Shown here piece by piece: positions 4,753 through 55,260 of a DNA stretch of 64,000 nucleotides. How positions within the stretch are numbered: position 1 is the stretch's first letter; each line of letters starts with the position of its first letter. The position numbers and the translations under genes are program-made. The DNA is taken from contig NC_092571.1 of the NCBI RefSeq assembly GCF_037975245.1, positions 22,387,564-22,451,563 of the forward strand. The letters are read 5' to 3'. Below the pieces are notes generated by a model. It ran no database searches, was not told the DNA's origin, and was given only the letters and a program-made list of their open reading frames with translations. Origin of the DNA: Apostichopus japonicus. Its lineage: Eukaryota > Echinodermata > Holothuroidea > Aspidochirotida > Stichopodidae.

Positions 4753-4859
4753 ACCTTACATGAATGTGGGAGAGAGATAGTAAGCGGGATATGGATTAAC
4801 AGAAACAGTCGAATGGTACGAATTCTAAATTGGTACCAAAAATCGGACCCGATTGCAAT

Positions 4860-24724: not shown

Positions 24725-25406
24725 TTTTTTTATGAAACTCCAAGATAATGTTTGAAATACGTGTGTATGCACAACGTAATATCTTCTGCAGGAAGTTCAA
24801 TGTGAAGCGTTGCATGGCAACAATAAGCTAATTCGTGACATATACACTTGGGGTAACGCTTAACTTCTAAAATATATTTTTTTCGTTTCATAGTATTTTA
24901 TTGATGCAATTATACTTTAAATATTTTAATAATTGTATATTGAACCAAATAAACCGTATAAATTAGTGACAAGAGAGATAGAGAAAGAAAAAAAGAATTA
25001 TGAATAACATTGCATCACTTTCAATTAGTGGTCCAACCGTGCGCCAGATGACAAGCGTCACCTGACATTACGAACAAAGCCAAAACACGAAAGTGTGTCA
25101 ATTCCGGAACTGTGTTTGACCGGACTGAACCTGGCCGACAGAGCTAGCAAACAGCAAATTATACTCTAAAGTAGGTATAATGCGGTCATCTGGCAGTAAC
25201 GTGACAAACCATGTGAATGATGAAGGCAAAGTGGGTAATATAGGATAGTATACAGTAACACTTGGAAGAGTCCACGTTAACGTGTTTTCTATTTATGCAA
25301 GTGCGTTGATTGTCCAAACAATTCAAATTACAATTCTCAGTACTGGCGTACACATGATTGACAAGGTGGAGAAGGGGTGGGGAGGGGACTTTTTTCACGA
25401 ATGATT
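24725..25406. promoter_or_regulatory. left side of the ZMYND12/arylsulfatase divergent upstream region
   Basis: No coding region is supported. Because ZMYND12 reads leftward from 24724 and the arylsulfatase reads rightward from 38944, this stretch should hold the ZMYND12 promoter. No TATA box at a convincing position was identified. It ends where tandem-monomer similarity begins. Confidence 0.4.
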
Positions 25407-28192
25407 CAATACAAACCTTAATACTACCCGAAGCAAGCAGAACAGCAAAAACTGTGCACTTCCAATAATTGCTAAGTAAATTAAACAGTATCACAATTTT
25501 GTCTAATTAAATGACCATCATATATGTATGCAAGGCACATTTTTCTTTAGTTTTGTTGAGTTTTCATGACAATCGAAGTGGGTCTACTATCAGCAGCAGG
25601 CGGATTCCGGCAGCGCCCTTATCGGCTCAATGCAAAATAATACACTAAAGAGCGAAAACAGCAAAAATGACAACCCCCATTAATTGCTCAATTTAACCCC
25701 GTGATAATTTTTGTGCCATCAAATGACTATCATAAATGAATGTAGGGGACATTATTCTTTCATTTTCATGACTTTTCATGACAATCGAAGGGGGTCTACT
25801 ATCTGCAGCAGGCGGATTCCGGCAGCGCCCTCATCGGCTCAATGCAAAAATACTACACTAAAGGGCGAAAACAGCTATAATGGCAACCCCCATTAATTGC
25901 TCAATTTAACCCCGTGATAATTTTTGTGCCATCAAATGACCATCATAAATGAATGTAAAGGACATTATTCTTTCGTTTTCATGACTTTTTTATGACAATC
26001 GAAAGGGGTCTACTACCAGCAGCAGGCGGATTCCGGCAGCGCCCTCATCGGCTTAATGCAAAAATACTACACTAAAGAGCGAAAACAGCAAAAATGACAA
26101 CCCCCATTAATTGCTCAATTTAACCCCGTGATAATTTTTGTGCCATCAAATGACCATCATAAATGAATGTAAAGGACATTATTCTTTCGTTTTCATGACT
26201 TTTCATGACAATCGAAGGGGGTCTACTATCAGCAGCAGGCGCATTCCGGCAGCGCCCTCATCGGCTAGTTGCAAAAATTATACACTAAACAGCGAAAACA
26301 GCCAAAATGACAACCCCAATTAATTGCTCAATTTAACCCCGTGATAATTTTTGTGCCATCAAATGACCATCATAAATGACTGTAGGGGACACTACTCTTT
26401 CTTTTTCATGACTTTTCATGACAATCGAAGGGGGTCTACTATCAGCAGCAGGCGGATTCCGGCAGCGCCCTCATCTCCTACTTGCAAAAAATACTACACT
26501 AAACAGCGAAAACAGCCAAAATGACAACCCCAATTAATTCTCAATATATGTAGGGGACATTATTCTTTCATTTTCATGACTTTTCATGACAATCGAAGGG
26601 GGTCTACTATCAGCAGCAGGCGGATTCCGGCAGCGCCCTCATCGGCTCAATGCAAAAATACTACACTAAAGGGCGAAAACAGCTATAATGGCAACCCCCA
26701 TTAATTGCTCAATTTAACCCCGTGATAATTTTTGTGCCATCAAATGACCATCATAAATGAATGTAAGGGACATTATTCTTTCGTTTTCATGACTTTTTAT
26801 GACAATCGAAAGGGGTCTACTACCAGCAGCAGGCGGATTCCGGCAGCGCCCTCATCGGCTTAATGCAAAAATACTACACTAAAGAGCGAAAACAGCAAAA
26901 ATGACAACCCCCATTAATTGCTCAATTTAACCCCGTGATAATTTTTGTGCCATCAAATGACCATCATAAATGAATGTAGGAGACACTATTCTTTTATTTT
27001 TATGACTTTTCATGACAATAGAAGGGGGTCTACTATCAGCAGCAGGCGGATCCGGCAGCGCCCTGATCCGATCCATGCAAAGTACTACACTAGGAGCGAA
27101 AACGGCCAAAATGACAACCCCAATTAATCGCTCAATATAACCCCGTGATAATTTTTGTGCCATCAAATGACCATCATAAATGACTGTAGGGGACACTACT
27201 CTTTCTTTTTCATGACTTTTCATGACAATCGAAGGGGGTCTACTATCAGCAGCAGGCGGATTCCGGCAGCGCCCTTATCTCCTACTTGCAAAAAATACTA
27301 CACTAAACAGCGAAAACAGCCAAAATGACAACCCCCATTAATTGCTCAATTTAACCCCGTGATAATTTTTGTGCCATCAAATGACCTTTCTCAATGCATT
27401 TAAGGGACATTATTCTCTCGTTTTCATGACATTTCATGACAATCGAAGGGGGTCTACTATCAGCAGCAGGCGGATTCCGGCAGCGCCCTCATCCGATCCA
27501 TGCAAAGTACTACACTAAACAGCGAAAACAGCTAAAATGACAACCCCATTAATTGCTCAATTTAACCCCGTAATAATTTTTGTGCCATCAAATGACCATT
27601 CTCTATGCATTTAAGGGACATTATTCCCTCGTTTTCATGACTTTTCATAACAATCGAAGGGGGTCTACTATCAGCAGCAGGCGGATTCCGGCAGCGCCCT
27701 CATCGGCTTAATGCAAAAATACTACACTAAAGAGCGAAAACAGCAAAAATGACAACCCCCATTAATTGCTCAATTTAACCCCGTGATAATTTTTGTGCCA
27801 TCAAATGACCATTCTCTATGCATTTAAGGGACATAATTCCCTCGTTTTCATGACTTTTCATAACGATCGAAGGGGGTCTACTATCAGCAGCAGGCGGATC
27901 CGGCAGCGCCCTGATCCGATCCATGCAAAGTACTACACTAGGAGCGAAAACGGCCAAAATGACAACCCCAATTAATCGCTCAATATAACCCCGTGGTAAT
28001 TTTTGTGCCATCAAATGACCATTCTCAATGCATTTAAGGAACATTTTTCTCTCGTTTTCATGACATTTCATGACAATCGAAGGGGGTCTACTATCAGCAG
28101 CAGGCGGATTCCGGCAGCGCCCTCATCGGCTAATTGCAAAAATACTACAATAAAGAACAAAAACATTAACAATGACATCCCCCATAATTGCT
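25407..28192 (+). repeat. left ~212-bp tandem array, ~13 units
   Basis: The anchor ACAATCGAAG, followed by GGGGTCTACTATCAGCAGC and CCGGCAGCGCCCTCATCGG, recurs at 25569, 25781, 25995, 26208, 26421, 26589, 26802, 27014, 27225, 27439, 27650, 27863 and 28073. Spacing is 210-214 bp except for one 168-bp unit (26421-26589) with an internal deletion. The outermost part, 25407-25568, is much more diverged than the inner units. Sub-variants include TATAATGGCAACC units at about 25870 and 26690. Confidence 0.95.
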
Positions 28193-30070
28193 GTGAGACT
28201 TAACTATGTTGTTTGAAAGATAAGTTATTCGAAACGGGTTAACAAATTACTATCACCAACCGTTGTGGAGTTATCAGCGTTTAACCGAAATTGGATAATT
28301 GGAACCGTTCACTTTAACTTTGAAGTTGCCTGAAAACTAGAGCTGTGGATGTAAAAATTGCCCCAATCGTCTTTGTCGTTTATTGATCTACGAATTTATA
28401 TTTTAATACTTTTCCTCTAAGTGAGGGCGCTATTTCATACAGCAATTTCCTATTTAATGAAATCATTAGAAATTTACGCAGGATATGTAAAATGTTTTTC
28501 CGTATCTGATGAGTGTATTTTAAAGTAAATTAAGACTCAGAATACTTTCTTATTAAGTGCACTTTATATTAAAGTAAAGTAACTACTAATTTAACATACT
28601 TTCTTTAGAGATGCCTTGGCACAAATTAATTCATGACACCATTAATACAAAATGTATGCGGTGAAAGTGTTGTGAAAACTTTCATAATGAACTACTCCGG
28701 TCTTCTACATAATCTGCATACACCATCCTATTGGCAGCCGTCGGGGAAAAGAAGACAACACTGTGAAAATTAGTTTTCAAACATGCTTTCGGAGGTGGGG
28801 GATGTTGAGCCCATTCCATTTTAAAGTAGGTGTCTAGAAGTGCATGAGTGTCGTAGTTGATTACATTTGTCATTTTTCTTCTGTAAATTTAAAACGAGGT
28901 GGGAGGGGGGGGGGTGGGTTGCACAATACATCCATAAAGGTGAATTTTCAAAACCTCCCAAAAGAAAGAGATTCTGTAGTAATTTTGTAATAGACAGAAA
29001 ATGAAATGAAAAAGACATACTCAAATACACTCAAGAAAGATACAGTCGACGAAGTAATAAGCTTGCTACAGTTGCATTTATGTACAACTACTTTAATTAG
29101 TTCTTGCCACATACGCCATGCACGTTTCTGGCTTTATGTACATTACACAAAATGAAACTCGTTTCAACTTCTAGGTGCTGTTTTTTCTGCATTATTTAAA
29201 GTAGCACACCTTGTGAGGATACTCACATCATAAAATCAGGCACAAACTATCCAGGTATACTTATTGAAACCACATCTCGGGAGCATGCTGGATGAGGAAG
29301 ATAACAAATATTCAACATATTCATTTCACGGCAGTACATTGCATGATGGGAAATATTCGTTTCACATAAAATTTGTTGATCAAAGCCTTTGTTTTTCTGT
29401 ATTATCTAGACACACACGTAAATGGCACGTGTAAACACTTGGGTGTCTGTTTTTTTTTTAAGTTTACTAAATCTAACCTGACACGGGGTGTTGTAAAATT
29501 CCGATGTCAAATAATGCATAACATTTAAGAAACAGCAAACATTTTGGTTGTATTTTTTGTGATATTATACCATGTAATAACCGTGCAGAAAGATGAATGA
29601 GGATGGAGGGCCCAAAGGCAGTCCAAAAATGAAATAAATGCAGAATGTAAACCACCTCCATAAATTCTACGATCTTCTTTTTTTGCGTCGTTATTATTCT
29701 TCGCAAAGAACTATAGTCTTTGAAGATAGTTAAGATAGATACTTTGTGAAAAGAGAAAAGCAAATTACCATAAACATTATACTAGCATGAAGAAAACCTT
29801 CTTAAACATGTTTTCCTACCCACCCTGCAGGTTAGACCAGTAAACCGGTCTTAACTGAAGTCCTGCCTGTAAGACAGCTGATATTTGCAGACCTCATTGT
29901 AGCTTTTAATACGGTTTCTCTTAGTGTAATTTTCGATCTTAAGAATAAAGTTAATTTTACAGTAGAAATACACAGGACTTAAATGATTAATTCAGCGTGT
30001 TTACATGTACGATGCTTGTTGCAAAGTTGACATCAGAGTAAACAAGGTACTATATAGACCAAATAAGGTT
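28193..30070. other. core of the candidate element, left part, no gene recognised
   Basis: AT-rich DNA downstream of the protease gene. Short minus-strand frames (28682-29030, 29473-29763) show no family motif. A duplicated AAAGTA-rich stretch occurs near 28540-28590. No transposase signature was seen on either strand. Confidence 0.4.
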
Positions 30071-30074
30071 AAAC

Positions 30075-30155
30075 AATTTTGCCATTAAATTACCGTCATA
30101 ATCGAATGTAAGGGATATTATTGTTTTGTTTGTTTTGTTTTGATAATCAAATCGG
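30075..30155 (+). repeat. isolated, decayed array monomer inside the core
   Basis: CAATTTTGCCATTAAATTACC then GTCATAATCGAATGTAAGGG and ATATTATTGTTTTG parallels the monomer stretch ATTTTTGTGCCATCAAATGACC, CATAAATGAATGTAAGGG, ACATTATTCTTTCG. It is in the left-array orientation, 1.9 kb inside the left array and just past the protease gene 3' end. Confidence 0.6.
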
Positions 30156-30279
30156 ATGTTTTTCTTTCGGTTACAAACGCTGGCCACACATACAACACAC
30201 TACAAGGGGTTGCTCCCGTATACATAGCGCAGATGCTTAGTTTATAGTTTGACCTCTTATGTATTGATCATGGAAGCGC

Positions 30280-32742
30280 CTAACTACGGGAAAGTATTGT
30301 TGTCGCTATGCGTCGTCTCTCGTAAGGTATATCATTCCATTTGACGTCTTTATTCAAACCCGTTGCGCTTTCGGCCAAGAGGCAAGTAAATACGCCGCAG
30401 TCACTCATGTTTCCTTGTTTGGCTGCGTCAGTTTTCATTCGAAAACACCATTCATCTAGATTAAGAGATCTCTCAGTATTTGCGATCAATAAAAATTGTT
30501 TGATATGGTCGAGGTGTGTTTTGTTGTTCGTATTATTAAGAGAATCGTAGTAGACAACCTCGCGCTGAATGTTATCCACCACCACTAAAGTCCAATGAGA
30601 AACAGAATTTATGGGAATTAATAAGAAATCTTGCTGAAATATATCGGAATTGCTACACCACCTATAAGCTTTGTCGTACCCATCGTTCAACAGGCTAGAA
30701 AAAAAGAATGTTGAGAAGGGGAATACCTTTGTGTTTAAAGATTTCTGAGCTGCCTCTGATAAAAGATTAAGATAAAAGTTAATGATATTGTCGTTTAATC
30801 ACCCGTCCGGCTCCATCAGCAACTTCAAGTCGTTCACCATAACGTTAATGCCAAATCCCCTGGTCACGGGTCGTCGTTGTGGGTCAAATAGGTCTTCGGC
30901 TACCTCGTCCTCCGTCGTCAAATCGATAATATCATCGGCACATTCTATATTTTTCTCAATGTTTTCCGTTGATCGATCCTGCTCAATAACAGGTGAGCGA
31001 TTGTCATGTTTACCTTCTTTAGTTATCTGTGAATGTCCAGTGGTATGGTCAGATGTGCTAGTAGGGTTGCATACTTTCTCGTGGTACATGTCGTCCTTGG
31101 TCTGGGTTTTGCACTTACCAATACCGCAATAAAATGTTACATTAAAACCAGACTTTACCGTTGAAGGAATACGCATACAGCTGTAATGGTACCATTCATC
31201 ACATTGCTTGCAATGGATGTACTGTCGTTTGTTATCATAATACGTTTGACAAGTGCAATACTTTCTTTTCATATTAATGTCGACCCAATTACTTGAAAAT
31301 CTTACTGGCTTACGTTTCCTCTTTTCCCTTGGTTTCGTTCTTGTTGCTCCTTCTCCCGATTCTACCAGTAATCGTATGTTTCCTCTGTTATTACACCATA
31401 TGCTCCGGAGGACCTTCACTGACCTCTTGAGATTTTTTGTCGACCAGCCCAGCTCCATAACGACACTCTCCCAGAAAGCTTTTGATGGTGATGAGGTAAC
31501 CGTCACCTTTTTTCTCACTGACGAAATTGCGGCAGAGATCTTGGCATACTCGGTACACGCAGGTCGTCCTCGCTTGTGAGCACCGCCCTTTAGCTGAGAG
31601 AAATCCCTTGTCGGTGATCGTTCCAGGAAATGTTCGTGTGACTCTTTCTATGAAAGGATAAATTGTATCGCAGGTTATTTATCATTTCGGTTCTTGTTTC
31701 GTACCACATTCGCATGACTACACAGCAGCTTCACTTAAATGAAACAAATTTTGCACACATTGTAATAAATGATAACTGAAAATCAGGTAAATACTGCTTT
31801 CATGCCGATAGTATACGATCATTTCTTCTCCCTTTCAGGCTTCAGGGCGTAATAGACGTAATAAAAAGAATATTTCAGTGGGATTTGAAAGCAGCTTCTA
31901 ATTGTAACGCTGCCTTCGTCCTCGGATGTTATGCTGATACATGCAGTGAATTCACCTTTACTTTCGGAGAAAGATAAAGAAGGGATAGGGCATATTCCTC
32001 TGGGCCGAAAACATGCAGGGTTAGGGTATGGATTGAAGCTGAAACACTTAATACCAGAACCGGTTCTCTGTGTTTGCATCTGTTTATGTACTAGTACGTA
32101 CAACGTGAAATATGTTACAAACACTGAACCCGGGACCTTGGTGGAGAGCATGGCTCGCGCTGCTATAAATTTGCGCCGTGACCTTGACGGGGGACTCTAT
32201 AACCAGCGCCGATATAAACTTAGCGGCTCACATTGACTCGCGCCGCTATATATGACCTTTTGCCGCGCACCGACTAGCAACGCCATGATCGTGGCGGCGC
32301 ACAATCACAGCTCAGAATTCAGGCGATCAAGTAGCCAGTACAGCAGAGGGAAGAGAGGGGGAACCACGCGACAACCACGTTAGCCTAACCGACGCGCCCT
32401 TCTTCACTACAACTCACCTCCCGCACCCAAAACACTGATCCAAATGTAATTCCAATTGCAAAAGCCAATGAAAGGTCTAAAAATTTCATTCAATACGAAG
32501 CGTTATCTTTATGGTAGTGAACTGACTCTAGCCACGCGTTGATAATCAAAGTTTGGTAAAAGAACCTCGTTGGGAAACCACTAGCATTCAATTGATAAAA
32601 AAATGCTCACCGGACGTTCGTCGCCATGATTCTGAGTTGGCCGTTTGAAGCGAATTGGCGTTGTATTAAACCCACTTGCCGTAATTGCGTGGTTCCATTG
32701 AACCTCCAAGCAATCTTCCTTTCCACCAGTGCGTTCTCCCAT
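30280..32742 (-). pseudogene. AT-hook-like / PHD finger / Ulp1 (C48) protease gene with one internal TGA
   Basis: Exon 2 (31647-30280) is one reading frame of 456 codons interrupted only by TGA at 30801-30799. In order it encodes KRGRP (AT-hook-like), a basic KREKRKRKPV-like stretch, a C4HC3 PHD finger (31257-31111) with ligands C,C,C,C,H,C,C,C, an acidic linker, then a Ulp1/SENP-type SUMO-protease domain (30798-30280). That domain begins LNDNIINFYLNLL and keeps the catalytic set: His 30597-30595 in SHWTLVVVD, Asp 30546-30544 in YYDS, Gln 30417-30415, Cys 30399-30397 in DCGVF. A plausible first exon, 32742-32611 (ATG GGA GAA...), has a CCG/GTGAGC donor in phase with the TTTCATAG acceptor before 31647. 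PHD fingers read histone tails and C48 proteases cleave SUMO-like conjugates; the biological role here is unknown. Without readthrough the product would lack the protease. Confidence 0.8.
32150..32265. repeat. CGCxGCTATA-type short repeats in the protease-gene intron
   Basis: CTCGCGCTGCTATAAATTTG, CAGCGCCGATATAAACTTAG and CTCGCGCCGCTATATATGACC are three imperfect ~40-bp repeats containing TATAA-like cores. They may be a decayed minisatellite or promoter-like sequence; no function is shown. Confidence 0.4.
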
Positions 32743-32800
32743 TTCCGTCGTTACCTGGGATGAGAAAGTTGAGTATAGGTCGATACATAAACAACCACAC

Positions 32801-32875
<75 letters not shown>

Positions 32876-32938
32876 ACGCGTGAAACTCCGAGTTACAACT
32901 ACTAGTGTTCCACTAGTCTCATCTAGTATCAACATATA

Positions 32939-32971
<33 letters not shown>
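32801..32971. repeat. two (TA)n tracts
   Basis: Uninterrupted TA runs at about 32805-32868 and 32940-32971, the latter followed by (TG)n. They lie ~60 bp upstream of the proposed first exon of the protease gene. Confidence 0.9.
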
Positions 32972-32973
<2 letters not shown>

Positions 32974-32979
32974 GTGTGT

Positions 32980-33515
32980 GTGTGTGTGTAGATATAGCAG
33001 CAGTAACTATATTCGTTAATTTAAAGTAAAATAGGGCCTATATATATAGAACAACGACATTTCAGATGAATTATAATTTGTACAACTTTTGCGATTGGGC
33101 GCTCCCAATCTACGAAAAGCATGTATCTCCTATGAAACCAGTTAACTTTAAACATTCCTTACTAAGACCAATTAAAGGCAAAAACTAGCTACCAAGTGAT
33201 ATCAGGTTTATTAAATGCATTTCTCTGCGCATTCCGTATGGGTTTTTTCACGTAATGATATAGACATGATAAAGTAAGAAGATGGAAATAACATAAAATG
33301 AAAGCCACGATTTGCTCTGATTACTTACGGATATGTAGGAGGTTATTTTTTCTTCTTGTTGCTTGATAAGTCACCCCATCATACCTCTACATCCTCGTCA
33401 TCTGGCGTTTGGTATCGCACTTTCGTTAACATTGGATTTATTCATTAACAACTAAAATATCGAAAAGAAACGGCTTGCTCCGCTAGGGGAAAGTGCTTCC
33501 ATATTACTGACTATC
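32980..33515. other. core of the candidate element, right part
   Basis: No coding region or second copy of other repeats recognised; AT-rich DNA between the microsatellites and the right array. Confidence 0.4.
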
Positions 33516-36500
33516 TATTTTAAGTATTTAGTGTAGCACTATCTGTTCATTGAGCTATTGAGGGCGCTGCCGGAATCCGCCTGCTGCTGATAGTAGACCC
33601 CCTTCGATTGTCATGAAAAGTCATGAAAATGAAAGAATAATGTCCCCTACATTCATTTATGATGGTCATTTGATGGCACAAAAATTATCACTGGGTTATA
33701 TTGATCAATTAATGGGGGTTGTCATTTTTGCTGTTTTCGCTCTTTAGTGTATTATTTTGCAATGAGCCGGTGATGGCGCTGCCGGAATCCGCCTGCTGCT
33801 GATAGTAGACCCCCTTTGATTGTCATGAAAAGTCATGAAAATGAAAGAATAATGTCCCCTACATTCATTTATGATGGTCATTTGCTGGCACAAAAATTAT
33901 CACGCGGTTAAATTGAGCAATTAATGGGGGTTGTCATTTTTGCTGTTTTAGCTGTTTAGTGTAGTATTTTTTGCAAGTAGGCGATGAGGGCGCTGCCGGA
34001 ATCCGCCTGCTGCTGATAGTAGACCCCCTTCGATTATCATGAAATGTCGTGAACATGGAAGAATAGTGTCCCCTACATATATTGAGGGTGGTCATTTGAT
34101 GGCACAAAAATTATCACGGGGTTATATTGAGCAATTAATGGGGGTTGTCATTTTTGCTGTTTTCGCTCTTTAGTGTAGTATTTTGCATTGAGCCGGTGAG
34201 GGCGCTGCCGGAATCCGCCTGCTGCTGATAGTAGACCCCCTTCGATTGTCATGAAATGTCGTGAACATGGAAGAATAGTGTCCCCTACATATATTGAGGG
34301 TGGTCATTTGATGGCACAAAAATTATCACGGGGTTATATTGAGCAATTAATGGGGGTTGTCATTTTTGCTGTTTTCGCTCTTTAGTGTAGTATTTTGCAT
34401 TGAGCCGGTGAGGGCGCTGCCGGAATCCGCCTGCTGCTGATAGTAGACCCCCTTCGATTGTCATGAAATGTCGTGAACATGAAAGAATATGTCCCTTACA
34501 TATATTAAGGGTGGTCATTTGATGGCACAAAAATTATCACGGGGTTAAATTGAGCAATTAATGGGGGTTGTCATTTTTGCTGTTTTAGCTGTTTAGTGTA
34601 GTATTTTTTGCAAGTAGGCGATGAGGGCGCTGCCGGAATCCGCTGCTGCTGATAGTAGACCCCCTTCGATTGTCATGAAATGTCATGAAGATGAAAGAAT
34701 AATGTCCCCTACATATATTGAGGGTGGTCATTTGATGGCACAAAAATTATCACGGGGTTATATTGAGCAATTAATGGGGTTTGTCATTTTTGCTGTTTTC
34801 GCTCTTTAGTGTAGTATTTTGCATTGAGCCGGTGAGGGCGCTGCCGGAATCCGCCTGCTGCTGATAGTAGACCCCCTTCGATTGTCATGAAATGTCGTGA
34901 ACATGGAAGAATAGTGTCCCCTCCAAATATTGAGGGTGGTCATTTGATGGCACAAAAATTATCACGCGGTTAAATTGAGCAATTAATGGGGTTTGTCATT
35001 TTTGCTGTTTTCGCTCTTTAGTGTAGTATTTTGCATTGAGCCGGTGAGGGCGCTGCCGGAATCCGCCTGCTGCTGATAGTAGACCCCCTTTGATTGTCAT
35101 GAAATGTCGTGAACATGGAAGAATAGTGTCCCCTACATATATTGAGGGTGGTCATTTGATGGCACAAAAATTATCACGGGGTTATATTGAGCAATTAATG
35201 GGGGTTGTCATTTTTGCTGTTTTCGCTCTTTAGTGTAGTATTTTGCATTGAGCCGGTGAGGGCGCTGCCGGAATCCGCCTGCTGCTGATAGTAGACCCCC
35301 TTCGATTGTCATGAAATGTCGTGAACATGAAAGAATATGTCCCTTACATATATTAAGGGTGGTCATTTGATGGCACAAAAATTATCACGGGGTTAAATTG
35401 AGCAATTAATGGGGGTTGTCATTTTTGCTGTTTTAGCTGTTTAGTGTAGTATTTTTTGCAAGTAGGCGATGAGGGCGCTGCCGGAATCCGCTGCTGCTGA
35501 TAGTAGACCCCCTTCGATTGTCATGAAATGTCATGAAGATGAAAGAATAATGTCCCCTACATATATTGAGGGTGGTCATTTGATGGCACAAAAATTATCA
35601 CGGGGTTATATTGAGCAATTAATGGGGTTTGTCATTTTTGCTGTTTTCGCTCTTTAGTGTAGTATTTTGCATTGAGCCGGTGAGGGCGCTGCCGGAATCC
35701 GCCTGCTGCTGATAGTAGACCCCCTTCGATTGTCATGAAATGTCGTGAACATGGAAGAATAGTGTCCCCTCCAAATATTGAGGGTGGTCATTTGATGGCA
35801 CAAAAATTATCACGGGGTTAAATTGAGCAATTAATGGGGTTTGTCATTTTTGCTGTTTTCGCTCTTTAGTGTAGTATTTTGCATTGAGCCGGTGAGGGCG
35901 CTGCCGGAATCCGCCTGCTGCTGATAGTAGACCCCCTTTGATTGTCATGAAAAGTCATGAAAATGAAAGAATAATGTCCCCTACATTCATTTATGATGGT
36001 CATTTGCTGGCACAAAAATTATCACGCGGTTAAATTGAGCAATTAATGGGGGTGGTCATTTTTGCTGTTTTAGCTGTTTAGTGTAGTATTTTTTGCAAGT
36101 AGGCGATGAGGGCGCTGCCGGAATCCGCCTGCTGCTGATAGTAGACCCCCTTCGATTGTCATGAAATGTCGTGAACATGAAAGAATAGTGTCCCCTACAT
36201 TCATTTATGATAGTCATTTGATGGCACAAAAATTATCACGGGGTTAAATTGAGCAATTAATGGGGGTTGTCAGTTTTGCTGTTTTCGCTCTTTAGTGTAG
36301 TATTTTGCATTGAGCCGGTGAGGGCGCTGCCGGAATCCGCTGCTGCTGATAGTAGACCCCCTTCGATTGTCATGAAATGTCGTGAACATGAAAGAATAGT
36401 GTCCCCTACATATATTAAGGGTGGTCATTTGATGGCACAAAAATTATCACGGGGTTAAATTGAGCAATTAATGGGGGTTGCCATTATAGCTGTTTTCGGT

Positions 36501-38225
36501 CTTTAGTGTAGTATTTTTGCATTGAGCCGATGAGGGCGCTGCCGGAATCCGCTGCTGCTGATAGTAGACCCCCTTCGATTGTCATGAAAAGTCATGAAAA
36601 TGAAAGAATAATGTCCCCTACATTCATTTATGATGGTCATTTGCTGGCACAAAAATTATCACGCGGTTAAATTGAGCAATTAATGGGGGTTGTCATTTTT
36701 GCTGTTTTAGCTGTTTAGTGTAGTATTTTTTGCAAGTAGGCGATGAGGGCGCTGCCGGAATCCGCTGCTGCTGATAGTAGACCCCCTTCGATTGTCATGA
36801 AAAGTCATGAAAATGAAAGAATAATGTCCCCTACATTCATTTATGATGGTCATTTGCTGGCACAAAAATTATCACGCGGTTAAATTGAGCAATTAATGGG
36901 GGTTGTCATTTTTGCTGTTTTAGCTGTTTAGTGTAGTATTTTTTGCAAGTAGGCGATGAGGGCGCTGCCGGAATCCGCCTGCTGCTGATAGTAGACCCCC
37001 TTCGATTATCATGAAATGTCGTGAACATGGAAGAATAGTGTCCCCTACATATATTGAGGGTGGTCATTTGATGGCACAAAAATTATCACGGGGTTATATT
37101 GAGCAATTAATGGGGGTTGTCATTTTTGCTGTTTTCGCTCTTTAGTGTAGTATTTTGCATTGAGCCGGTGAGGGCGCTGCCGGAATCCGCCTGCTGCTGA
37201 TAGTAGACCCCCTTCGATTGTCATGAAATGTCGTGAACATGGAAGAATAGTGTCCCCTACATATATTGAGGGTGGTCATTTGATGGCACAAAAATTATCA
37301 CGGGGTTATATTGAGCAATTAATGGGGGTTGTCATTTTTGCTGTTTTCGCTCTTTAGTGTAGTATTTTGCATTGAGCCGGTGAGGGCGCTGCCGGAATCC
37401 GCCTGCTGCTGATAGTAGACCCCCTTCGATTGTCATGAAATGTCGTGAACATGAAAGAATAGTGTCCCCTACATATATTAAGGGTGGTCATTTGATGGCA
37501 CAAAAATTATCACGGGGTTAAATTGAGCAATTAATGGGGGTTGCCATTATAGCTGTTTTCGGTCTTTAGTGTAGTATTTTTGCATTGAGCCGATGAGGGC
37601 GCTGCCGGAATCCGCTGCTGCTGATAGTAGACCCCCTTCGATTGTCATGAAAAGTCATGAAAATGAAAGAATAATGTCCCCTACATTCATTTATGATGGT
37701 CATTTGCTGGCACAAAAATTATCACGCGGTTAAATTGAGCAATTAATGGGGGTTGTCATTTTTGCTGTTTTAGCTGTTTAGTGTAGTATTTTTTGCAAGT
37801 AGGCGATGAGGGCGCTGCCGGAATCCGCTGCTGCTGATAGTAGACCCCCTTCGATTGTCATGAAAAGTCATGAAAATGAAAGAATAATGTCCCCTACATT
37901 CATTTATGATGGTCATTTGCTGGCACAAAAATTATCACGCGGTTAAATTGAGCAATTAATGGGGGTTGTCATTTTTGCTGTTTTCGCTCTTTAGTGTAGT
38001 ATTTTTGCATTATGCCGATGAGGGCGCTGTCGGAATCCGCCTGCTGCTGGTAGTAGACCCCTTTCGATTGTCATGAAAAGTCATGAAAATGAAAGAATAA
38101 TGTCCACTACATTCATTTATGATGGTCATTTGCTGGCACAAAAATTATCACGGGGTTATATTTAGCGAAACATTGGGGTTGTCAAATTACCTGTTTTCGC
38201 TCTGTAGTGTAATACTTCTGCATTG
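33516..38225 (-). repeat. right ~212-bp tandem array, ~22 units, inverted relative to the left array
   Basis: GCGCTGCCGGAATCCGC, the reverse complement of the left-array anchor, recurs at about 33565, 33776, 33990, 34202, 34414, 34627, 34839, 35051, 35263, 35476, 35688, 35901 and then every ~212 bp to 38025. Units come as CGCCTGCTGCTG or CGCTGCTGCTG (3-bp) variants. A four-unit block (34200-35050) is repeated almost exactly at 35050-35900, and a five-unit block at 36324 recurs at 37385. The outermost unit (38150-38225) is the most diverged, as in the left array. Confidence 0.95.
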
Positions 38226-38943
38226 CGATTTTATAAAATACCTTATTAAATCATATTCAATCCTCATCATTTTTCAGACCATCAGTAATATCCAAGCATA
38301 AAAAAGTAATGTGATGACTCACAAAATCTCCCCAAAATCAATAAAGCAGGTTAGTTTAGGGTTATTTTCCGAAGTTTAACCTCTCAGGTCGACGTACACT
38401 AATCTAACTTTTTAGTGATACGTCAATAACCCCGGAGTTTATTTTCCAATCTCCTACGAGCAAAAAGACGAAGAATATCTAACATCAATACAAACTTCAC
38501 TTGTCAATTGAGAAATTGAGCGTAAAGAATGAGGTACAGTTTGCGCTTTCTTTTAATTCCTTAAAATTAACAGACTAAAAACTTCGCCAATTTTGTCTAT
38601 TTCCCCTGTCCCTTCGTTCTCAAAAGCATCTCACTTCGCATGGTAACGTTTTTGCTGTTAACAACATTTACCGCATATTTCACATAATTTGCGGTCAACC
38701 TTTGACCCCAAAAGCCAACCTCCGCGGCTACAGTGTTGAACTTTAGCGACGACGTTTTTTTTCGAGATACCTTCCTTTGCTTCCTTGGAATGCTCGATTG
38801 TCTGTGCAACCTGCATGAATTCAATACCCTATTCGAGGTAGACGCTGTTCATTTTCAGCGATCTGTCAGAGGTCTGTTGGCCAGCTTCAGCCCGGTCTGT
38901 GTTTGGGTTGAACAAAATCAACTACAAAGTCGAAGTAGCGAAA
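38226..38943. promoter_or_regulatory. upstream region of the arylsulfatase gene
   Basis: The reading frame of exon 1 is open upstream to 38899 but without an ATG before 38944. No coding similarity is seen on either strand. It should contain the arylsulfatase promoter; the element's right end lies 718 bp upstream of the start codon. Confidence 0.4.
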
Positions 38944-41900
38944 ATGCAGTTCATATCACTTGTTGCTGTTTTGCTTGTTTTTGTCAACATTTCTGTTGCA
39001 AAGCCTCCTCATATTGTTTTCATTCTCGCTGATGATTATGGCTTCCACGATATAGGGTATCATAACAACAAGGTTTTAACACCCAACCTTGACACTTTGG
39101 CCTCGACTGGTATAAGACTAGACAACTACTATGTTCAGCCGATATGTACGCCCACAAGAAGCCAGTTGATGAGTGGTCGGTATCAAGTGAGTGAAACTTG
39201 CATCCATCCCAAGGGTGAAAAAATGAAAAAGAAAATACGATATGAGTGATGACTCACTCAAGCTAGGCCTATACTCAGTCAGATTTTCCAACTGACGTAG
39301 ATATTTCTGCTAGTTTGGTTCATTTTTAGCTTGATATGTGTTAAATTCTTATGTTCGCATATAATGAGTGGACAAACCAACCCTATGCAGCATGGTGGGT
39401 TCGGTTCTGGTGCAATTAAAGGTTTCCAGAATAGACCCTAAATACACAACAAAGTCAAACCATGGACACTCATGCTTAGAACTGACAAATTTCACTCCTT
39501 GTCTATTAAGTAGGCTATATTTGTCTTATTCTCACATAGCCCACTGTAGGTTATTGTAATGTTATTGAATATGCATTCATATGTACGTGTGCAAACGATG
39601 CACTACATTATATAATCTGCACCTGTATGCTAATGAGCTGTGTATTTGCATATTGATATATAAGTTAAAGCATGCCGTTTGCTCGTCCTTGTTCACCCTG
39701 TCTCTCCATCTGTCAACAAGTAACCTTGGACATATCGTCCTATATGTCCTGTACAGCATGATGTAACGCAATAAATAATAACATGTTATATGTTAATACT
39801 CTACGTCGACTGTGTTCTACTTGATTGTTTGAAAGAACTCATATACCTAAACAAGGAAACATGACAGTTATGTAGCTTTTGCAATGTGGTAATGTTTATG
39901 TTGACAAAAAAACCTAGGCCTATGAAACTCTAGGCAATTTCTGGAGGAGTATTTGTATGGCAAAGTCTACAGAAAAAGAGTGTGATGCATCTTGCATTCA
40001 CTTGGATAATCTCAAATGAGTTACAAATACAAAGTTACCATGCTTATTAGTACAAATTTATATAACAAATATGTGTGGTCATAGTATGACTCATGGTGTA
40101 AATGTAGCAATTAGTATCCGTCTCACAAATATTCACAGTCTCATTCAATATCATGATATTTGCACAGAATTCCATCATCTAGACTGTTGGCTTAATAATA
40201 CAATGTTTCATAAATTTCTCATGCAGATTCACACAGGTTTACAACATGGTATCATCTGGCCACCGCAGCCTCATTGCCTGCCCCTCACAGATCCAACATT
40301 GGCTGATAAATTGAAGGAGGCTGGATATGCAACTCATGCTGTCGGGAAGTGGCACCTGGGAATTTATAAAAAAGCCTGTTGGCCAACACAGCGAGGTTTT
40401 GACTCCTACTTTGGTAAGAAAAATTGAGCCTATTTTTACAGGTGTGTCAAATATATACACAAACTTAGAATGTTAACTTAAACTGTTTGTTGTGTATCAG
40501 TTGCAGTTTATACTGTCAACACATCTTTTTGATGAACTGCTCAAGGCCGCTCAATAAGGAGACAAGTTTCAGATTATTGGCTCAGCTGTTGCTGTCATCA
40601 TTTCTGTCATCATTCCATTCATATTGTGACCGACTTTCTATCATCTTGCATATTTTATCTTGAAACATAGTCCATGAAACATAGTGATCCATGGAGTCTG
40701 TATAGAGCTTATTTACAGCCTGTGTACCTGTTGCAGCTTCTCTTGCCATATTCCAACTCGCACACTTCGTTCCTCCAACAAACTGTATTTAACTGTTCCT
40801 AAACCATGCTAGAAGACCTATGGTTACAGAAGCTTCAAATACTCTGGCTCTTATCTCAGGAACAAGTTACCAGATCACATTCGAACATGCTCTAAACTTT
40901 CTACATTCAAAAGTCTACTTAAGACCCATCTTTTCACTTGTTCTTATGTAAATTAATCTGCTTTCTTTGTAAAGCGCCTTGAGCAGTGACTTTTGTCTAC
41001 TGATTTGGCGCTATATAAGTCTCATTTATTATGATTATTATTTAAAGAAACTTTTCAACACATACATAAACTTTGTGGCATTAACAAAGATATATACTGA
41101 TGGAACATCTGATTTCACTCATGGTCTCAACTAGTTGTCCATAATGTAGAGTATTAGTTTAAGTGTTGCATTTTGTTTTGTTTTCAGGCTATTTGACAGG
41201 TAGTGAAGACTACTATACTCATAGCAGAGGCTGCGGAATGCCAAACTTTCCAACATGTAAGAAATGGAATGGTCTTGATCTTTATGAAAATGAAGAACCA
41301 GCCTGGGATTACAAGCAAAATTACTCAACATTTCTGTTTGTTGATAAAGCTAAAGATGTGATCAGCGCACATGACAAAACCAAAGTGAGTAAAACTGATT
41401 TTTTATATCATTCTTTTCGATTTGGGTTTTGATGATAATTGTATCCTATGCAATCATGATGGCATATATGTGTGTGTGTGTGTTTAAATTTGAATTGAAT
41501 ATGAATTTATTGTCCCAATCGGAAATTTGGCTTACACAGGTCGTAAACGAAAAAAGGAACAATAAAAAGCAATTTAGTATAAGTATCAATAGACTGCGAT
41601 ACACATACAGTAATACAAACAAATATGCAGCAAGTCCTACAAATAAGAAACTTATCTTCTCACTTGTGAATTAAATATATGGATAGAATTAGGCACAAAT
41701 GAGTATCTGTAGCGGTCCCTAAGTGTACATGGTGGGCATAAATGCAGTCCAGAGCGGTTGTAATTATAGTGCTCAAACAAAGGGTGTGTTGGGTCTTGCA
41801 TGATATGTTTCAGTTTATTGCAGACCCTCTCATGATACAAGTACTCTAATGATGGTAATTGAGCACCGATTACATGCTGAGCAACTGTTGCCTTGTTTGT

Positions 41901-50400: not shown

Positions 50401-53400
50401 CACTATTTATGTTCAAATATCAAGTAAGGAGATGGATTTCATTTCAAAGGAGAGAACTCATTACCTTAAGTTTTAGTTAAGAAAGTAGACCAAGCTCTTT
50501 GAAAATGGAATTACCATTACATCTAAGAGTAAAGTCGCTTCTTTAGAAATCAAGTACATTCTGAAGTGAAAAATTCACATTTTGTTCTTTTTCTTGTTGA
50601 TTTCGTCCTTGTCATTCACGAGACATTACTTTCCTTGGGACTAATTATGTTTCAATAAAGTGTTTTGTAAGTTGATTTCATCTTCATTTCATAAATATTA
50701 ATATTAATAATAATGGTGATTTATAACATCAGCAATATCCACCTGGAAGGGTGCTCAAGGCGTGGAAGACGCAGATAGAAAACAAAGGAAAAGTGAATGA
50801 ACAAAAAGAATTATTGGTGAACATAGATGAAAGCTTGACACATAAGATGAGTTTTCAGAAGTGTTTGGAACAAAGGGAGGGAAGCACAACATATGAGTTC
50901 TCATGGTACTCCATTCATGCTATGTTTATCATCATTGTTAAGTCTATTAATTTCAATGAATAATTGAGTATGTAACAAATAAACTAGAACAGTCACTGTA
51001 GTAGTTTTACTTCATGTTTATCCTTCTTGTTGTTTATACAGTATTTTACATATTAATTAGACATAACTGTTTCTAGTACCTACCTTAGCTACAAATGCAC
51101 CACCTGGTTTCAGTACATGTGTCGTGATGTTCAACGCCTATGGAAGAATGATGAGAACAATATTATAAATGTAATGTAAAAACAAAAGAAGAAAATTTTA
51201 TTTAATATAAACAACAAATTTGGTAAAGCACATGATTGTATGAGATCGCTGATTGAAATCACAAGCTAATGCAAAGTTTCAGAGCTATTTTAAAAAGATT
51301 TTCAATAGATCTGGGTATCTGATGCCTGAAAATAAAAGTGCTTTTAGCTAACAGGAGGCATAGCAATATACAGTTCAGGCAGTTCATTGAACTACGGCCT
51401 CTGATGTCCAGGGGTCCTTAACGGTTGGATCCAAAATTTCAAAACCATGTTTTTGCATGAATGATTAAATAGGTATCAATAACATCTCAATGTTTTAGTC
51501 TTTTCTATTTCACTAGCAACTGTTTTTGTCTAATTGACAAATTAACTGCCGGCCCAGGTGAATACCAGATGTATCATGGCACTTTAGCTCTAATATTACA
51601 TATTTTCATAAAGCAGTACAAAAGTATTTCCATTTGTTGCTAGGTAACAGATAAATCAGGTATATCAAAATATATACCAATTTAATCAAATAATCTAGGT
51701 TCATCAGTATATTGCATATGCATAAACAATACAAAAGTATTTGTTTGTTGCTAGGTAACAGATAATCCAGGTTTATCAAAACATCAACCAAGTTATTTCC
51801 ATAATCCAGGTTTATCAGTATATTTCATTTGCATAATCAGTACAAACGTATTTCTGTTTGTTGCTAGGTTGTTTATCACTCGATGCATCAAGTTATTTCT
51901 ATAATCTAAATTTATCAGGCAATAAATCTGGAATTATCACAGGAAAAACTGGATTTTTCAGTGATGGTCCTAGTTTATATCAAATTATTTTAATAATTCT
52001 GGATCATAGGTAAAAATTCTGGTTTATCACTGAGAAACTGGACTTATCAGCTGATAATTTGGCTTACAATATATGTACCAAGTGCAACTGACAAAAGCTA
52101 TGAGACTTACTGCAAGTAACAGCTGTGCTTGAATGTATTCATCTATATCATGGAGGCCTGTCACTGAAATCATGATAAAAGTAGAAAAATCTTTAAAAAC
52201 AATTCAATATCAATCCTGTGTTTAACAGCGACCATCCTCAAACATATTTTTTTTTTTTTAACTGAAACCTTATAAACAGATATTTAGGAATCATTTTTTG
52301 TGTGTGGCAGAAACATAAAGTTTGGAGTGTTGAAGGCTGTGAGGTTGGAAACTGGTAGCAATGAATCAAATTTAATACATGAAGTTTGGCGCTTAAAAAA
52401 TGGTTTGTTTTTAATTAAACACAAAATACCCAAATAAAAAAGGTTTGATATTACTTATGACAATTTGTGCCTTTGTTTTTGCGAACAAGAAAGTGACTAA
52501 AGATAGCTTTCTTCGTGAATTACTTTAAGTAGTATAAAATATTCAGCTAGAGTGTTTGCCTAAAATGTAATATTAACACTGTTGCCCATTGACTAGGCAT
52601 AACTTTTACAATCACGTCAATTGATGGATGTTTATATTAAACTATTGTACAAGGATCAGTATTCTCTTGATACATCTATGGATATTAATTGATATTGTGT
52701 CTTTATTTATCTTTTCTCATGTATATCTAATTTATTTAAATATTACTAATCTCCCCCCTCCCCCAAAGCAGGAACAAAATGCCAGGGATGCTAACTTTTA
52801 AGCATTTACATCAAAGAAGGCGCTTTTCTCGGTAGAACAGCTGTATCCCAGCTCTTTAAAAGTTAGATACTGTATAAACAAATATATGTTTCCACCAAAT
52901 ATCCATATGAAACAAGAAATGGTAGAACCAAGTCAGCAGACACCCTCTTATAGTGTATGAAGAGCAAAGCCTTTACATTAGACCACATGTAAGGTAGTCT
53001 TCCAATGACTGATTGGGAGGGGGATATCAGGAAAGGGGGATGTCGGAAGGGGGGTATCTGGGAAGGGGATATCTGGGAAGGAGATAACTGGGAAGGGGAC
53101 ATCAGGGAAGGGGGATATCGGGAAGGGGGTATCTGTGAAGGGGATATCCGGGAAGGGGATATCTGGGAAGGGGTATCCGGGAAGGGATATCTGGGAAGGG
53201 GATATCAGGGAAGGGGATTTCCAGGTAGGGGGATATCAGGGAAGGGTAATATCGGGAAGGAGGTATCGGGATATCAGGGAAGGGGTTATCAAAGAAGGGG
53301 GATATCACAGAAGGGGAATAACAGGGAAGGGGATATCAGGGTACGGTAATATCAGAGAGGGGGATATCTGGGAATGGGGTAATCAGGGAAGGGGATATCA

Positions 53401-55260
53401 GGGAAGGGGATATGAGGGAAGGGGGTATCAGGGAAGGGGATATCACAGAAGGGGAATAACAGGGAAGGGGATATCAGGTAGGGGATATCGGGAAGGGGAA
53501 TATCAGGGAAGGGGGTAATCAGGGAAGGGGATATCAGGGAAAGGGGATATCAGGGAAGAGGGATATCACAGAAGGGGAATAACAGGGAAGGGAATATCAG
53601 GAAGGGGAATATCTGGGAAGGGGGTAATCAGGGAAGGGGGATATCAGGGAAGGGGATCAGGGTAGGGGAATATCAGGGAAGGGGATATCAGGAAGGGGAA
53701 GGGGAGGTAGGACTCCCCTCAGTGCGACCTTACCATCTGGTGCACCATCACAAACCACCAAGTCGGCATGTTCCCCTTCAAAGTGGCCGACAATTTCACG
53801 TGCAGTTGACTCCTGAAAGGGGGGGGGGGGGAGGGGACGAAGAAAGAGATGGAAGGATTAATATTAAAGATGTGGCATTGAATATGCGGATAAACATGAG
53901 CATTAACTTAGAGAACTAGAATATATAACCAAAACAGGTCAAAACAAAATACTTGCATCGTATGACAAGTTTTTAATTTCATCCAGCTCACAATTTCATT
54001 GTTAACAGTCCACACAGAGATAAACAGAATACCTATTACACATTAGAGAAAAAAGTCACAAAGTTAATCAAATCTTTGCCTCATGTTGCAGTTTAAATTT
54101 AAGCAGCAAAAAGTGTAAATTTCTTCATAACTTTAAAGATCAAAATCAAAATGATGACATGGGGGGGGGGGCAACTTTCTACATCACTCGTCACTGAACA
54201 TATACAGTAGAGACCCTGGCGTTTGTTCTGCTTACCTTTGTGATATCTCCCTGCATCTGAATGACACCGGGGAGAGGGGCCATAGCCTGAAGATCAATAG
54301 CTACTATTTTCACTTTGGAATCATCATCATCATCTCTGAAAAAAAAAACAATTAGATGAACACAGATCAGAATATTGACTGATTTTGCTATCATAAAATT
54401 GTTGACAAATTGTAGGTTGTCATAGAAACAGTTTATTTCTGAAACAATGATCACTTTCATTTCAGCTATTTTGTTCTAATTTCCATTTTCTTTTTCCTGT
54501 ATCTGTATCGGAAAGAAAAGAAATGACATACCTCAGCCGTCGACTCAGAACTTGACTCCAACTTCCAGGTGCGGCACAAAGGTCAACTGCTTTGGTAACG
54601 CCTAAAGCAAAGGACACATAAACACACTCAGAATGATAAACTTTCCCTAATGAGAGATGACACTCCAAGGAAGCTCTTATAAACTATAACAAAGTAGTAA
54701 TAACGATATTATTGAGGATTTATATCACGCAGATATATCTACCTAACCCATGTGCTCAAGGCGCATGACAATATTACCCTAGTCAATAGGATACTACACA
54801 TTATAACAGCATAAATGCCAACATCTCATACCCTTCAAGGCATTGAAGACTCACCCCAAACCGCGGGCCGCACTCTGAAAAAGTTAACTTTCCGTTGCTT
54901 GCAAGTGAAGTTTACTTCTTGTCGCTGCAAAGTGCAGACAGTATAAATGAAACGTGATACCTTGTTATCTAATATCTAGACCTGAGATGTCCATCGCTGC
55001 TATGTACACTGTGCTGTGGGTCCAAATGAGCTTCTGCTAGCTTCTCAACTCTAGGGAAATAATCAGCTAAACTATGGTATATAGGTATGTGCCCTACAGA
55101 TTTTAGGCTGAGATGATGGCCATGTATCGTTAACTGTACCTTTAAAGATGTCAAACTCTTCATTAATTTGTATCAATTTGAAAGCACTTCTTGCCCTCCA
55201 TCCTTCCTCTTTGGCTAATCTGTAGTAGATGTCTCTTTTATCTTTAGAAGAACGTCCCAT
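47453..55260 (-). CDS. FTSJ1: FTSJ1 (TRM7-type) tRNA 2'-O-methyltransferase (ten exons, complete)
   Basis: SAM-dependent enzyme that, with partner subunits, 2'-O-methylates anticodon-loop positions 32 and 34 of cytosolic tRNAs. Exons in order: 55260-55140, 54601-54532, 54335-54236, 53812-53734, 52163-52111, 51137-51084, 50144-50042, 49878-49795, 48917-48814, 47695-47453; all GT-AG and in phase, 336 residues (human about 329). The N-terminus [20 protein letters not shown] is nearly invariant in the family. SAM motif I is [13 protein letters not shown] (residues 47-59). The K-D-K-E catalytic tetrad is present: K28 (SAFKL), D119 (VVCDGAPD), K159 (GGAFVAKIFRG), E194 (SSRNSSIES), the last split by intron 7. 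A run of five Asp (residues 65-69) sits where vertebrates have a short linker. The C-terminal ~80 residues are acidic and variable, as usual in animals. Confidence 0.95.
48266..48468. mobile_element. MITE-like foldback, FTSJ1 intron 9
   Basis: CTGTCCTGTCATGTCCTGC, TTCAGAACACTGGTGTTGTC is mirrored by GACAATACCAGTGCTTTGAA, GCATGATATGGGAGGACAG. The arms are ~65 bp and imperfect, also pairing at CCAGTTAGGACAATTT with AAATTGTCTAAACTGG, with a ~50-bp loop. Divergence of the arms implies an old insertion. Confidence 0.65.
51600..51925. repeat. ~120-bp tandem repeat, FTSJ1 intron 5
   Basis: CAGTACAAAAGTATTTC, TTTGTTGCTAGGTAACAGAT and CCAGGTTTATCA recur about 2.7 times with a period near 120 bp. Copies are moderately diverged. 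Confidence 0.75.
53008..53712. repeat. GGGAAGGGGATATCA minisatellite, FTSJ1 intron 4
   Basis: About 700 bp of a ~15-17 bp unit, GGGAAGGGGATATC(A/T)G, with the palindrome GATATC at the centre of most units and length variants such as GGTAATC and GGAATAAC. It ends 22 bp before the exon 4 donor on the transcribed strand. Glycine-rich ORFs here are repeat artefacts. Confidence 0.95.

What the first reader, a model, noticed from the sequence alone, without database searches (positions are those of the whole stretch)
25407..38225. Giant foldback-like element: two opposed arrays of one 212-bp monomer enclosing a PHD-Ulp1 protease gene
The same monomer forms ~13 units on one side and, in inverse orientation, ~22 units on the other, with ~5.3 kb between. 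Outer ends stop at the same monomer phase (CAATGCAAA..), and the outermost units on both sides are the most diverged. This is what a transposon with tandem-repeat inverted termini would look like, in the style of Drosophila FB and sea urchin TU elements, but with a SUMO-protease/PHD gene as cargo or element gene. I know of no described family with this exact combination, though I could not search.
Basis: partly seen in the sequence, partly recalled or inferred. Interest (0 to 1): 0.88.

Follow-up and report, generated by a model that had tools for sequence, protein, structure and literature searches.

The report
Foldback transposon with satellite-array arms
The two facing repeat arrays and the gene between them are one jumping gene that is present in many copies in this genome; the copy in the window has lost the middle of its gene, and the kind of element was already glimpsed in insects and worms under the name Rehavkus.

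Summary
Paired, opposed arrays of the 212-bp monomer occur at 16 of 17 genome loci listed at 80% identity or more, and all 17 carry the same terminal sequence outside the array. The true ends lie beyond the arrays (window 25119 and 38896): a 24-bp imperfect inverted repeat, flanked by the 9-bp duplication CTGTGTTTG. Perfect 9-bp duplications flank 9 of 10 elements read at both sides. The window copy is internally deleted. Four copies keep an unbroken 1509-codon frame: PHD finger, DDE core, ubiquitin hydrolase, Ulp1 protease. The core's predicted fold is closest to ISCth4 transposase. A second family, ~40% identical in the core, has the same layout with an unrelated 172-bp monomer around 3 of 3 long-frame copies found. 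Elements of 76 and 81 kb with different target duplications share foreign sequence, so the ends may move very large segments. Known kin: Rehavkus-1_TC (PHD, 9-bp duplication, 164-bp arrays in inverted termini) and Tetris. It is a new variant with two fused proteases. Homology to Rehavkus itself could not be tested.

The parts
25110..25118 (.). 9-bp target-site duplication, left copy (CTGTGTTTG)
   Evidence: identical to 38897-38905
25119..25142 (+). terminal inverted repeat, A end (ACCGGACTGAACCTGGCCGACAGA)
   Evidence: 21 of 24 identical to the B end
25119..25408 (+). A terminal region, unique sequence outside the array
   Evidence: 94-99% identical over 225-354 bp in the 6 other copies compared; flanks beyond it differ
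25409..28195 (-). A-side array, about 13 monomers of ~212 bp (orientation is that of the monomer profile)
28196..33547 (-). internal region; its main blocks are 97-99% identical to other copies (91-98% in the last block, next to and into the B array); lacks ~3.16 kb and ~1.3 kb present in the full copy E22
30077..30131 (-). single degenerate monomer inside the internal region
   Evidence: also a 52-bp match at 83% to the monomer consensus
30280..30798 (-). remnant of the element protein: Ulp1/Peptidase_C48 domain, cut off from the upstream frame by a premature in-frame stop
30799..31647 (-). remnant of the element protein: N-terminal part with PHD finger, fused in frame by the deletion to the linker before Ulp1
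31106..31112 (-). junction of the ~3.16-kb internal deletion that removed roughly residues 181-1233 of the full protein (DDE core and ubiquitin hydrolase)
33548..38225 (+). B-side array, about 22 monomers, inverse to the A-side array
38226..38896 (-). B terminal region, unique sequence outside the array
   Evidence: 18 places in the genome at >=88% identity, all next to an array
38873..38896 (-). terminal inverted repeat, B end (ACCGGGCTGAAGCTGGCCAACAGA on the minus strand)
38897..38905 (.). 9-bp target-site duplication, right copy (CTGTGTTTG)

Best explanation
Window 25119-38896 (13,778 bp) is an internally deleted, probably non-autonomous copy of a cut-and-paste DNA transposon related to Mutator/Rehavkus elements. 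SHOWN: a defined element with 24-bp imperfect inverted ends, 9-bp target duplications, two unlike terminal regions (290 and 671 bp), and subterminal opposed arrays of a 212-bp monomer around an internal region that in full copies is ~10 kb with one 1509-codon frame (PHD finger, DDE core, ubiquitin C-terminal hydrolase, Ulp1; a WRKY-like fold before the DDE core is suggested). INFERRED: the DDE domain binds the ACCGG... ends, excises the element and inserts it with a 9-bp staggered cut. Copies such as the window's are moved in trans by the intact ones. The arrays travel with the element, expand and shrink by unequal exchange, and give a platform of repeated binding or pairing sites that helps bring the two ends together. 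The PHD finger reads chromatin, and the two proteases strip ubiquitin and SUMO from the transposase or from silencing complexes.
For: Multi-copy layout: 17 loci with arrays at >=80% identity, 16 of them with a minus array followed by a plus array (listing truncated, counts are lower bounds). All 17 have the B terminus next to the array, 18 termini in all because one locus has it at both ends.
Target duplications: perfect 9-bp repeats in 9 of 10 elements read at both sides, all different. The miss, E17a, lacks the last 88 bp of the B terminus.
Coding: 1509-codon frame unbroken in 4 copies, 99% identical. Pairwise pN/pS is 0.30-1.06 over six pairs, so constraint is only weakly indicated.
Domains: PHD, UCH, Peptidase_C48. 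D495, D571 and E816 are invariant in the 10-member alignment, with a Cys-x-x-His between the second D and the E (His invariant, Cys at 90% or more).
Arrays are inherited with the element: B-side arrays of different copies differ by 0.067-0.098 per site, A against B by 0.080-0.120. The nearest neighbour of a monomer is in the same array for 241.0 of 358, on the same side of another element for 108.3, on the other side for 8.6, ties shared.
Second family: 3 of 3 long-frame copies found with a ~39-41% identical core are enclosed by opposed arrays of an unrelated 172-bp monomer.
Against: No Pfam MULE match in any of 10 aligned members and no credible PDB sequence match (best E 0.93), so the Mutator link rests on fold, motif pattern, PHD and duplication length. 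The ISCth4 lead over Hermes and P element is 2-3 Z units at rmsd 5.6, not decisive. A-side arrays of different copies are not closer to each other (0.078-0.109) than to B-side arrays, so side-specificity is clear for B only, apart from the nearest-neighbour counts. No motif shared by monomer and termini stands out: the best are 10-11-bp matches at E 0.5-1.9, so the binding-platform role of the arrays has no direct support. One intact-frame pair shows pN/pS above 1 (E4-E8, 1.06). PHD is listed for only 1 of 13 and Ulp1 for 6 of 13 relatives, so these domains are not general in the group. No transcript, protein or excision was seen. The start of the frame lacks an obvious ATG, so an upstream exon is assumed.
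Confidence: 0.9

Rival explanations
1. Ordinary satellite DNA that happens to lie in both orientations around a host PHD-Ulp1 gene.
For: The monomer is a typical satellite length, and arrays vary from 5 to 42 units per side.
Against: Every array listed at >=80% identity sits beside the same terminus sequence: 17 of 17 loci. Target duplications in 9 of 10. The 'gene' lies in blocks 97-99% identical to element copies elsewhere. The listing is truncated and only 40 of 63 candidates were scored, so free arrays elsewhere are not wholly excluded.
Confidence: 0.02
2. A cut-and-paste element of another DDE superfamily (P/Galileo-like, hAT-like or KDZ/Zisupton-like) that acquired foldback arms and a 9-bp duplication.
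Against: 9-bp duplications rather than 8 (hAT, P: recalled). Cys-x-x-His between second D and E (that this is a Mutator trait is recalled). ISCth4 fold first. PHD plus inverted satellite arrays matches Rehavkus.
Confidence: 0.1
3. The 76-81 kb versions are not mobile units but ordinary elements enlarged by nested insertions after they landed.
For: A degenerate transposase of another family lies inside the C8 giant. E8 carries a ~12.7-kb insert. Only small samples of the giants were read. The sampled cargo piece also occurs at many other places.
Against: Giants on two chromosomes share the same array-to-cargo junction (365 bp at 96%, L043 of the second C9 giant against L044 of C8) and an internal piece at 92-94%, while the C8 and first C9 giants have different perfect target duplications; so the insert was there before one of them moved.
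Confidence: 0.3
4. The window copy is a domesticated host gene (PHD-Ulp1) born from the element.
For: The deletion fuses the PHD part in frame to the linker before Ulp1.
Against: A premature in-frame stop separates the fused frame from the protease domain. No sign of use was seen, but conservation in other species was not testable.
Confidence: 0.03

Closest known systems
Rehavkus DNA transposons (Repbase; Rehavkus-1_TC of Tribolium castaneum, Rehavkus of annelids)
   Same: 9-bp target duplication, PHD finger, one frame, minisatellite next to a terminal inverted repeat; in Rehavkus-1_TC (9.5 kb) a 164-bp satellite forms arrays of mostly 5 and 8 units in the inverted termini (PMC6446971 and PMC10218199, passages read).
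   Different: Hosts given in PMC6446971 are arthropods and annelids; here the named relatives come from a sea cucumber, a mussel and rotifers. Longer arrays (up to 42 units), longer elements, and a ubiquitin hydrolase plus Ulp1 in the same frame; the passages read do not say whether Rehavkus has these. No Rehavkus sequence could be compared here.
Tetris / DAIBAM of Drosophila virilis and D. americana
   Same: Outer flank domain, then ~220-bp tandem repeats, then inner domain in inverted termini; 8-10 bp duplications; arrays vary in copy number (PMC4079207, passages read).
   Different: No transposase was found for Tetris; its repeat also forms long arrays of up to 66 copies. Here four copies with intact frames exist and no free arrays were seen in the matches listed.
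Tm1 of Meloidogyne (Mutator/foldback, Phantom type)
   Same: Composite internally repetitive inverted repeats with unlike outermost motifs, 9-bp duplications, Mutator-type transposase (PMC3169594, passages read).
   Different: ~14-bp repeat motif, 496-aa transposase with FLYWCH and a Pfam MULE domain; no PHD, ubiquitin hydrolase or Ulp1 mentioned in the passages read.
Galileo (P superfamily foldback) and Drosophila FB, sea urchin TU
   Same: Long internally repetitive inverted arms.
   Different: Galileo has a P-type transposase (PMC3573991, search listing; PMC3169594, passage). FB and TU are compared from memory only; arms there are built of short repeats.
ISCth4 transposase (PDB 6xgx, 6xg8, 6xgw)
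   Different: 11-12% identity over the aligned residues; bacterial and without PHD or protease domains (recalled).

Membership tests
Cut-and-paste DNA transposon | inverted terminal repeats flanked by a target-site duplication of fixed length | tested here: met
   24-bp inverted repeat, 21 of 24 identical; 9-bp duplication in 9 of 10 elements read at both sides
Cut-and-paste DNA transposon | multiple copies at unrelated sites | tested here: met
   17 loci listed; at least two are probably segmental duplicates of another locus, by shared outer flank (C9) or shared truncated end (C17)
Mutator-like (MULE) superfamily | DDE catalytic core of RNase-H fold with helical insertion, Cys-x-x-His between second D and E | tested here: met
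   D, D, E and His invariant, Cys at 90% or more, in 10 members; fold closest to ISCth4. That ISCth4 is of the IS256 family is recalled; that Mutator and IS256 transposases share the MULE domain is in PMC3169594 (passage)
Mutator-like (MULE) superfamily | sequence match to the Pfam MULE domain | tested here: inconclusive
   no match at E<=10 in 10 of 10 members; divergence may exceed the model's reach, and the search of the genome with PF10551 did not complete
Mutator-like (MULE) superfamily | 8-11 bp target duplication | tested here: met
   9 bp
Mutator-like (MULE) superfamily | N-terminal zinc domain of WRKY/FLYWCH type | tested here: inconclusive
Rehavkus | PHD finger in the element protein | tested here: met
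   Pfam PHD at 131-174, 25.9 bits against a cut-off of 24
Rehavkus | 9-bp target duplication | tested here: met
Rehavkus | tandem repeats in or next to the inverted termini | tested here: met
   unrelated monomer in a second family
Rehavkus | terminal inverted repeat of 26-400 bp (published range) | tested here: inconclusive
   24 bp outside the arrays; far longer if the opposed arrays are counted
Rehavkus | transposase sequence falls with Rehavkus in a tree | not testable with these tools
Foldback (FB-type) element | internally repetitive inverted arms | tested here: met
   opposed 212-bp arrays
Foldback (FB-type) element | inverted repeats of the two arms reach the ends of the element | tested here: not met
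   beyond the first 24 bp the terminal regions (290 and 671 bp) are unlike each other; Tetris also has an outer domain. So it works like a foldback element but is not filed as FB

The most novel reading that the evidence does not exclude
The same ends and arrays can mobilise segments of 76-81 kb. Two giant versions (C8:36962927-37038928 and C9:36358889-36439478) have the family's termini, opposed arrays, different perfect 9-bp target duplications, and shared foreign sequence. Part of that sequence also occurs in a multi-copy cluster at C9:26.3-28.2 Mb. If so, a Mutator/Rehavkus-type foldback element captured tens of kilobases of genomic sequence and transposed it as one unit, a natural counterpart of the very large foldback-bounded units of Drosophila, with satellite arms that may hold distant ends together.
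Probability: 0.5. Interest if true: 0.82.

Novelty: new variant of a known kind. Interest (0 to 1): 0.63.

Why it matters
Some foldback elements with satellite-like arms are orphans without a known transposase (Tetris; from memory sea urchin TU). This family gives intact candidate transposases together with the arms, in a genome whose nearest named relatives lie outside the hosts given for Rehavkus. Two families whose catalytic cores share ~40% identity keep the same opposed-array layout with unrelated monomers, so the layout itself seems to be maintained while the repeat turns over; that makes the question of what the arrays do directly testable. The frame joins a DDE core to both a ubiquitin hydrolase and an Ulp1 protease, which points to host ubiquitin/SUMO control of the element. 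Such genes carry protease names in databases (for example 'Sentrin-specific protease 2' and 'Ubiquitin carboxyl-terminal hydrolase 36' entries returned). The giant versions would show a route by which large genomic segments move.

Tried and rejected
Rejected readings: plain satellite; host gene between satellites; array as the terminus (terminal sequence continues 290/671 bp beyond). A shared binding motif between monomer and termini was sought and only chance-level 10-11-bp matches found. Pfam, NCBIfam and PDB sequence searches did not name the catalytic core. The 50 rows shown by the fold comparison name no eukaryotic Mutator transposase; that absence means nothing. Pieces of the giants (L040, L049) had no clear coding content by inspection of their open frames; L048 holds a degenerate transposase of another family. 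Paper searches: 'transposon, transposase, Ulp1, ubiquitin carboxyl-terminal hydrolase, PHD finger, DDE' with at least 5 of 6 terms gave 0 papers; 'Rehavkus' gave 8; others. The library lacks most subscription papers, and Repbase itself was not available, so 'not in print' is not claimed. Whether the ~31% family (L036) has arrays was not tested.
Full report
OBSERVATION.

COPIES. A 901-bp piece of the right array searched against the window's own assembly (G000, 671.6 Mb in 35 contigs; the window is C11:22387564-22451563) gave 171 matches, not all listed, with 40 of 63 candidates scored. At 80% identity or more the listed matches fall into 17 loci, by my reading of the list. At 16 of the 17 a minus-strand array precedes a plus-strand array; at C22:16.57 Mb only one arm is listed. 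Two further loci match at 71%. I read six other copies (E14, E22, E3, E8, E4, E17a) and later a seventh (L033/E17c). The main blocks of their internal regions align with the window's at 97-99% for the first six, falling to 91-98% in the block next to the B array, and at 93% for the first 2.2 kb of E17c. Monomer counts per side range from 5 to 42 (units covering 150 or more model positions).

TRUE ENDS. Conserved sequence continues beyond the arrays on both sides and stops at ACCGGACTGAACC... (A end) and ACCGGGCTGAAGC... (B end). The ends form a 24-bp inverted repeat with 21 identities. In the window the element is 25119-38896, flanked by CTGTGTTTG. Perfect 9-bp repeats flank E14, E22, E3, E8, E4 and E11, E17c beside a duplicated 13-bp piece of its A end, and two giant elements: 9 of 10 elements read at both sides. 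The exception, E17a, lacks the last 88 bp of the B end. The B terminal region searched against the genome gave 40 matches, 18 of them at 88% or more. All 18 lie next to an array: 0-75 bp from an array match, or 10 bp or less where maps the monomers further out. C10:4.29 Mb has a B end on both sides. In E17c the internal segment is turned round relative to the ends. Both are what recombination between opposed arrays would give (inference).

CODING. Full copies carry one frame of 1509 codons on the same strand as the window's remnant. It is unbroken in 4 copies, C14, C4, C3 and C8:17.3 Mb, split into two frames in E22, and partial with a stop at C10. Pfam finds a PHD finger (131-174), ubiquitin C-terminal hydrolase (934-1206) and Peptidase_C48 (1337-1502). 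The window copy lacks ~3.16 kb between them, roughly residues 181-1233, and has a premature in-frame stop before the protease domain. Pairwise pN/pS among the four intact frames, by simple counting, is 0.30, 0.32, 0.50, 0.47, 0.63 and 1.06: a weak hint of constraint, with few differences.

ARRAYS AS PART OF THE ARCHITECTURE. B arrays of different copies are close to each other (0.067-0.098 per site), A against B is 0.080-0.120; A arrays among themselves (0.078-0.109) are no closer than A to B. Nearest neighbours are in the same array for 241.0 of 358 monomers, on the same side of another element for 108.3 and on the other side for 8.6, ties shared. So arrays are carried along and also turn over locally. 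The own-genome protein search also showed other families. The three long-frame copies found of the ~39% family (C12, C8:40.4 Mb, C20:28.4 Mb) are all enclosed by opposed arrays of a 172-bp monomer without detectable similarity to the 212-bp one. Layout kept, repeat replaced: this argues that the arrays are a working part, although what they do is not shown. I think it most likely that they are repeated binding or pairing sites that assist synapsis (probability about 0.5); a passive by-product of unequal exchange or of repair during transposition is the main alternative.

GIANTS. Three array pairs span 75-82 kb. C9:36358889-36439478 (80.6 kb) has B end, B array, foreign sequence, A-side internal sequence, A array and A end, with GAATAATAG on both sides. 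C8:36962927-37038928 (76.0 kb) has CAATTTATG on both sides. The second C9 giant shares 975 bp, outer flank included, with the first at 97.6% and is therefore read as a segmental duplicate; only its left end was read. The second C9 giant and the C8 giant share the array-cargo junction (365 bp at 96%). A 1.1-kb cargo piece matches all three (100, 94, 92%) and also a cluster at C9:26.3-28.2 Mb (81-97%), C7:13.9-14.1 Mb and, in part and at lower identity, many other places. In the first C9 giant this piece lies directly beside the B array, in the other two 3-4 kb further in, so that copy has probably lost the part between. The cargo was therefore present before one of the two insertions. About 6.3 kb of the C8 giant and 3.2 kb of the first C9 giant were read, so cargo content is unknown apart from a degenerate transposase of another family. 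I put the probability that the giants moved as units at about 0.5.

KNOWN KIN. Rehavkus: 9-bp duplication, 26-400 bp inverted repeats, PHD finger, minisatellite, arthropods and annelids (PMC6446971, passages). Rehavkus-1_TC: 9.5 kb with a 164-bp satellite in arrays of mostly 5 and 8 in its inverted termini (PMC10218199, passages). Tetris: flank domain plus ~220-bp repeats, no transposase found (PMC4079207, passages). Tm1: Mutator/foldback with 9-bp duplications (PMC3169594, passages). The review of giant transposons mentions very large units between foldback elements in Drosophila (PMC6431247, passages). The element works like these. Membership in Rehavkus is likely (about 0.65) but untested by sequence.

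VERDICT. It is a new variant of a known, poorly described kind. The points of interest are the intact multi-domain frame with two proteases, an array layout that outlasts its repeat, and giant derivatives.

Noticed in passing
window 38897-39032: The insertion lies ~40 bp upstream of the apparent start codon (38944) of a frame with a Pfam Sulfatase match (E 5.5e-11), so it sits in the 5' region of that gene.
   Followed up: partly
window 32801-32971: AT dinucleotide tracts where the full copy E22 carries ~1.3 kb more; the second difference between window and full copy is bounded by these tracts.
   Followed up: partly
C17:1418129-1425564 and C17:1478020-1483913 (own assembly): Two short copies 60 kb apart with the same truncated B end, probably a segmental duplication.
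   Followed up: no
L036 (C3:10484501-10490500): By eye, a ~31% relative has a ubiquitin-hydrolase-like stretch before, not after, the DDE core; several rotifer relatives look the same. Domain order seems to have been shuffled within the group (not tested by Pfam position).
   Followed up: no
E8, C8:17.31-17.36 Mb (L018-L022): About 12.7 kb of foreign sequence sits inside the internal region between the array and the gene; not identified.
   Followed up: no
L038, C12:23379580-23380000: A further minisatellite (49/168-bp units) to the right of the second-family element.
   Followed up: no
window 4449-4763 and 52863-53900: Low-complexity tandem coding-like repeats in the open-frame list (e.g. SQGCPANK..., GKGISGRG...), probably non-coding minisatellites.
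   Followed up: no
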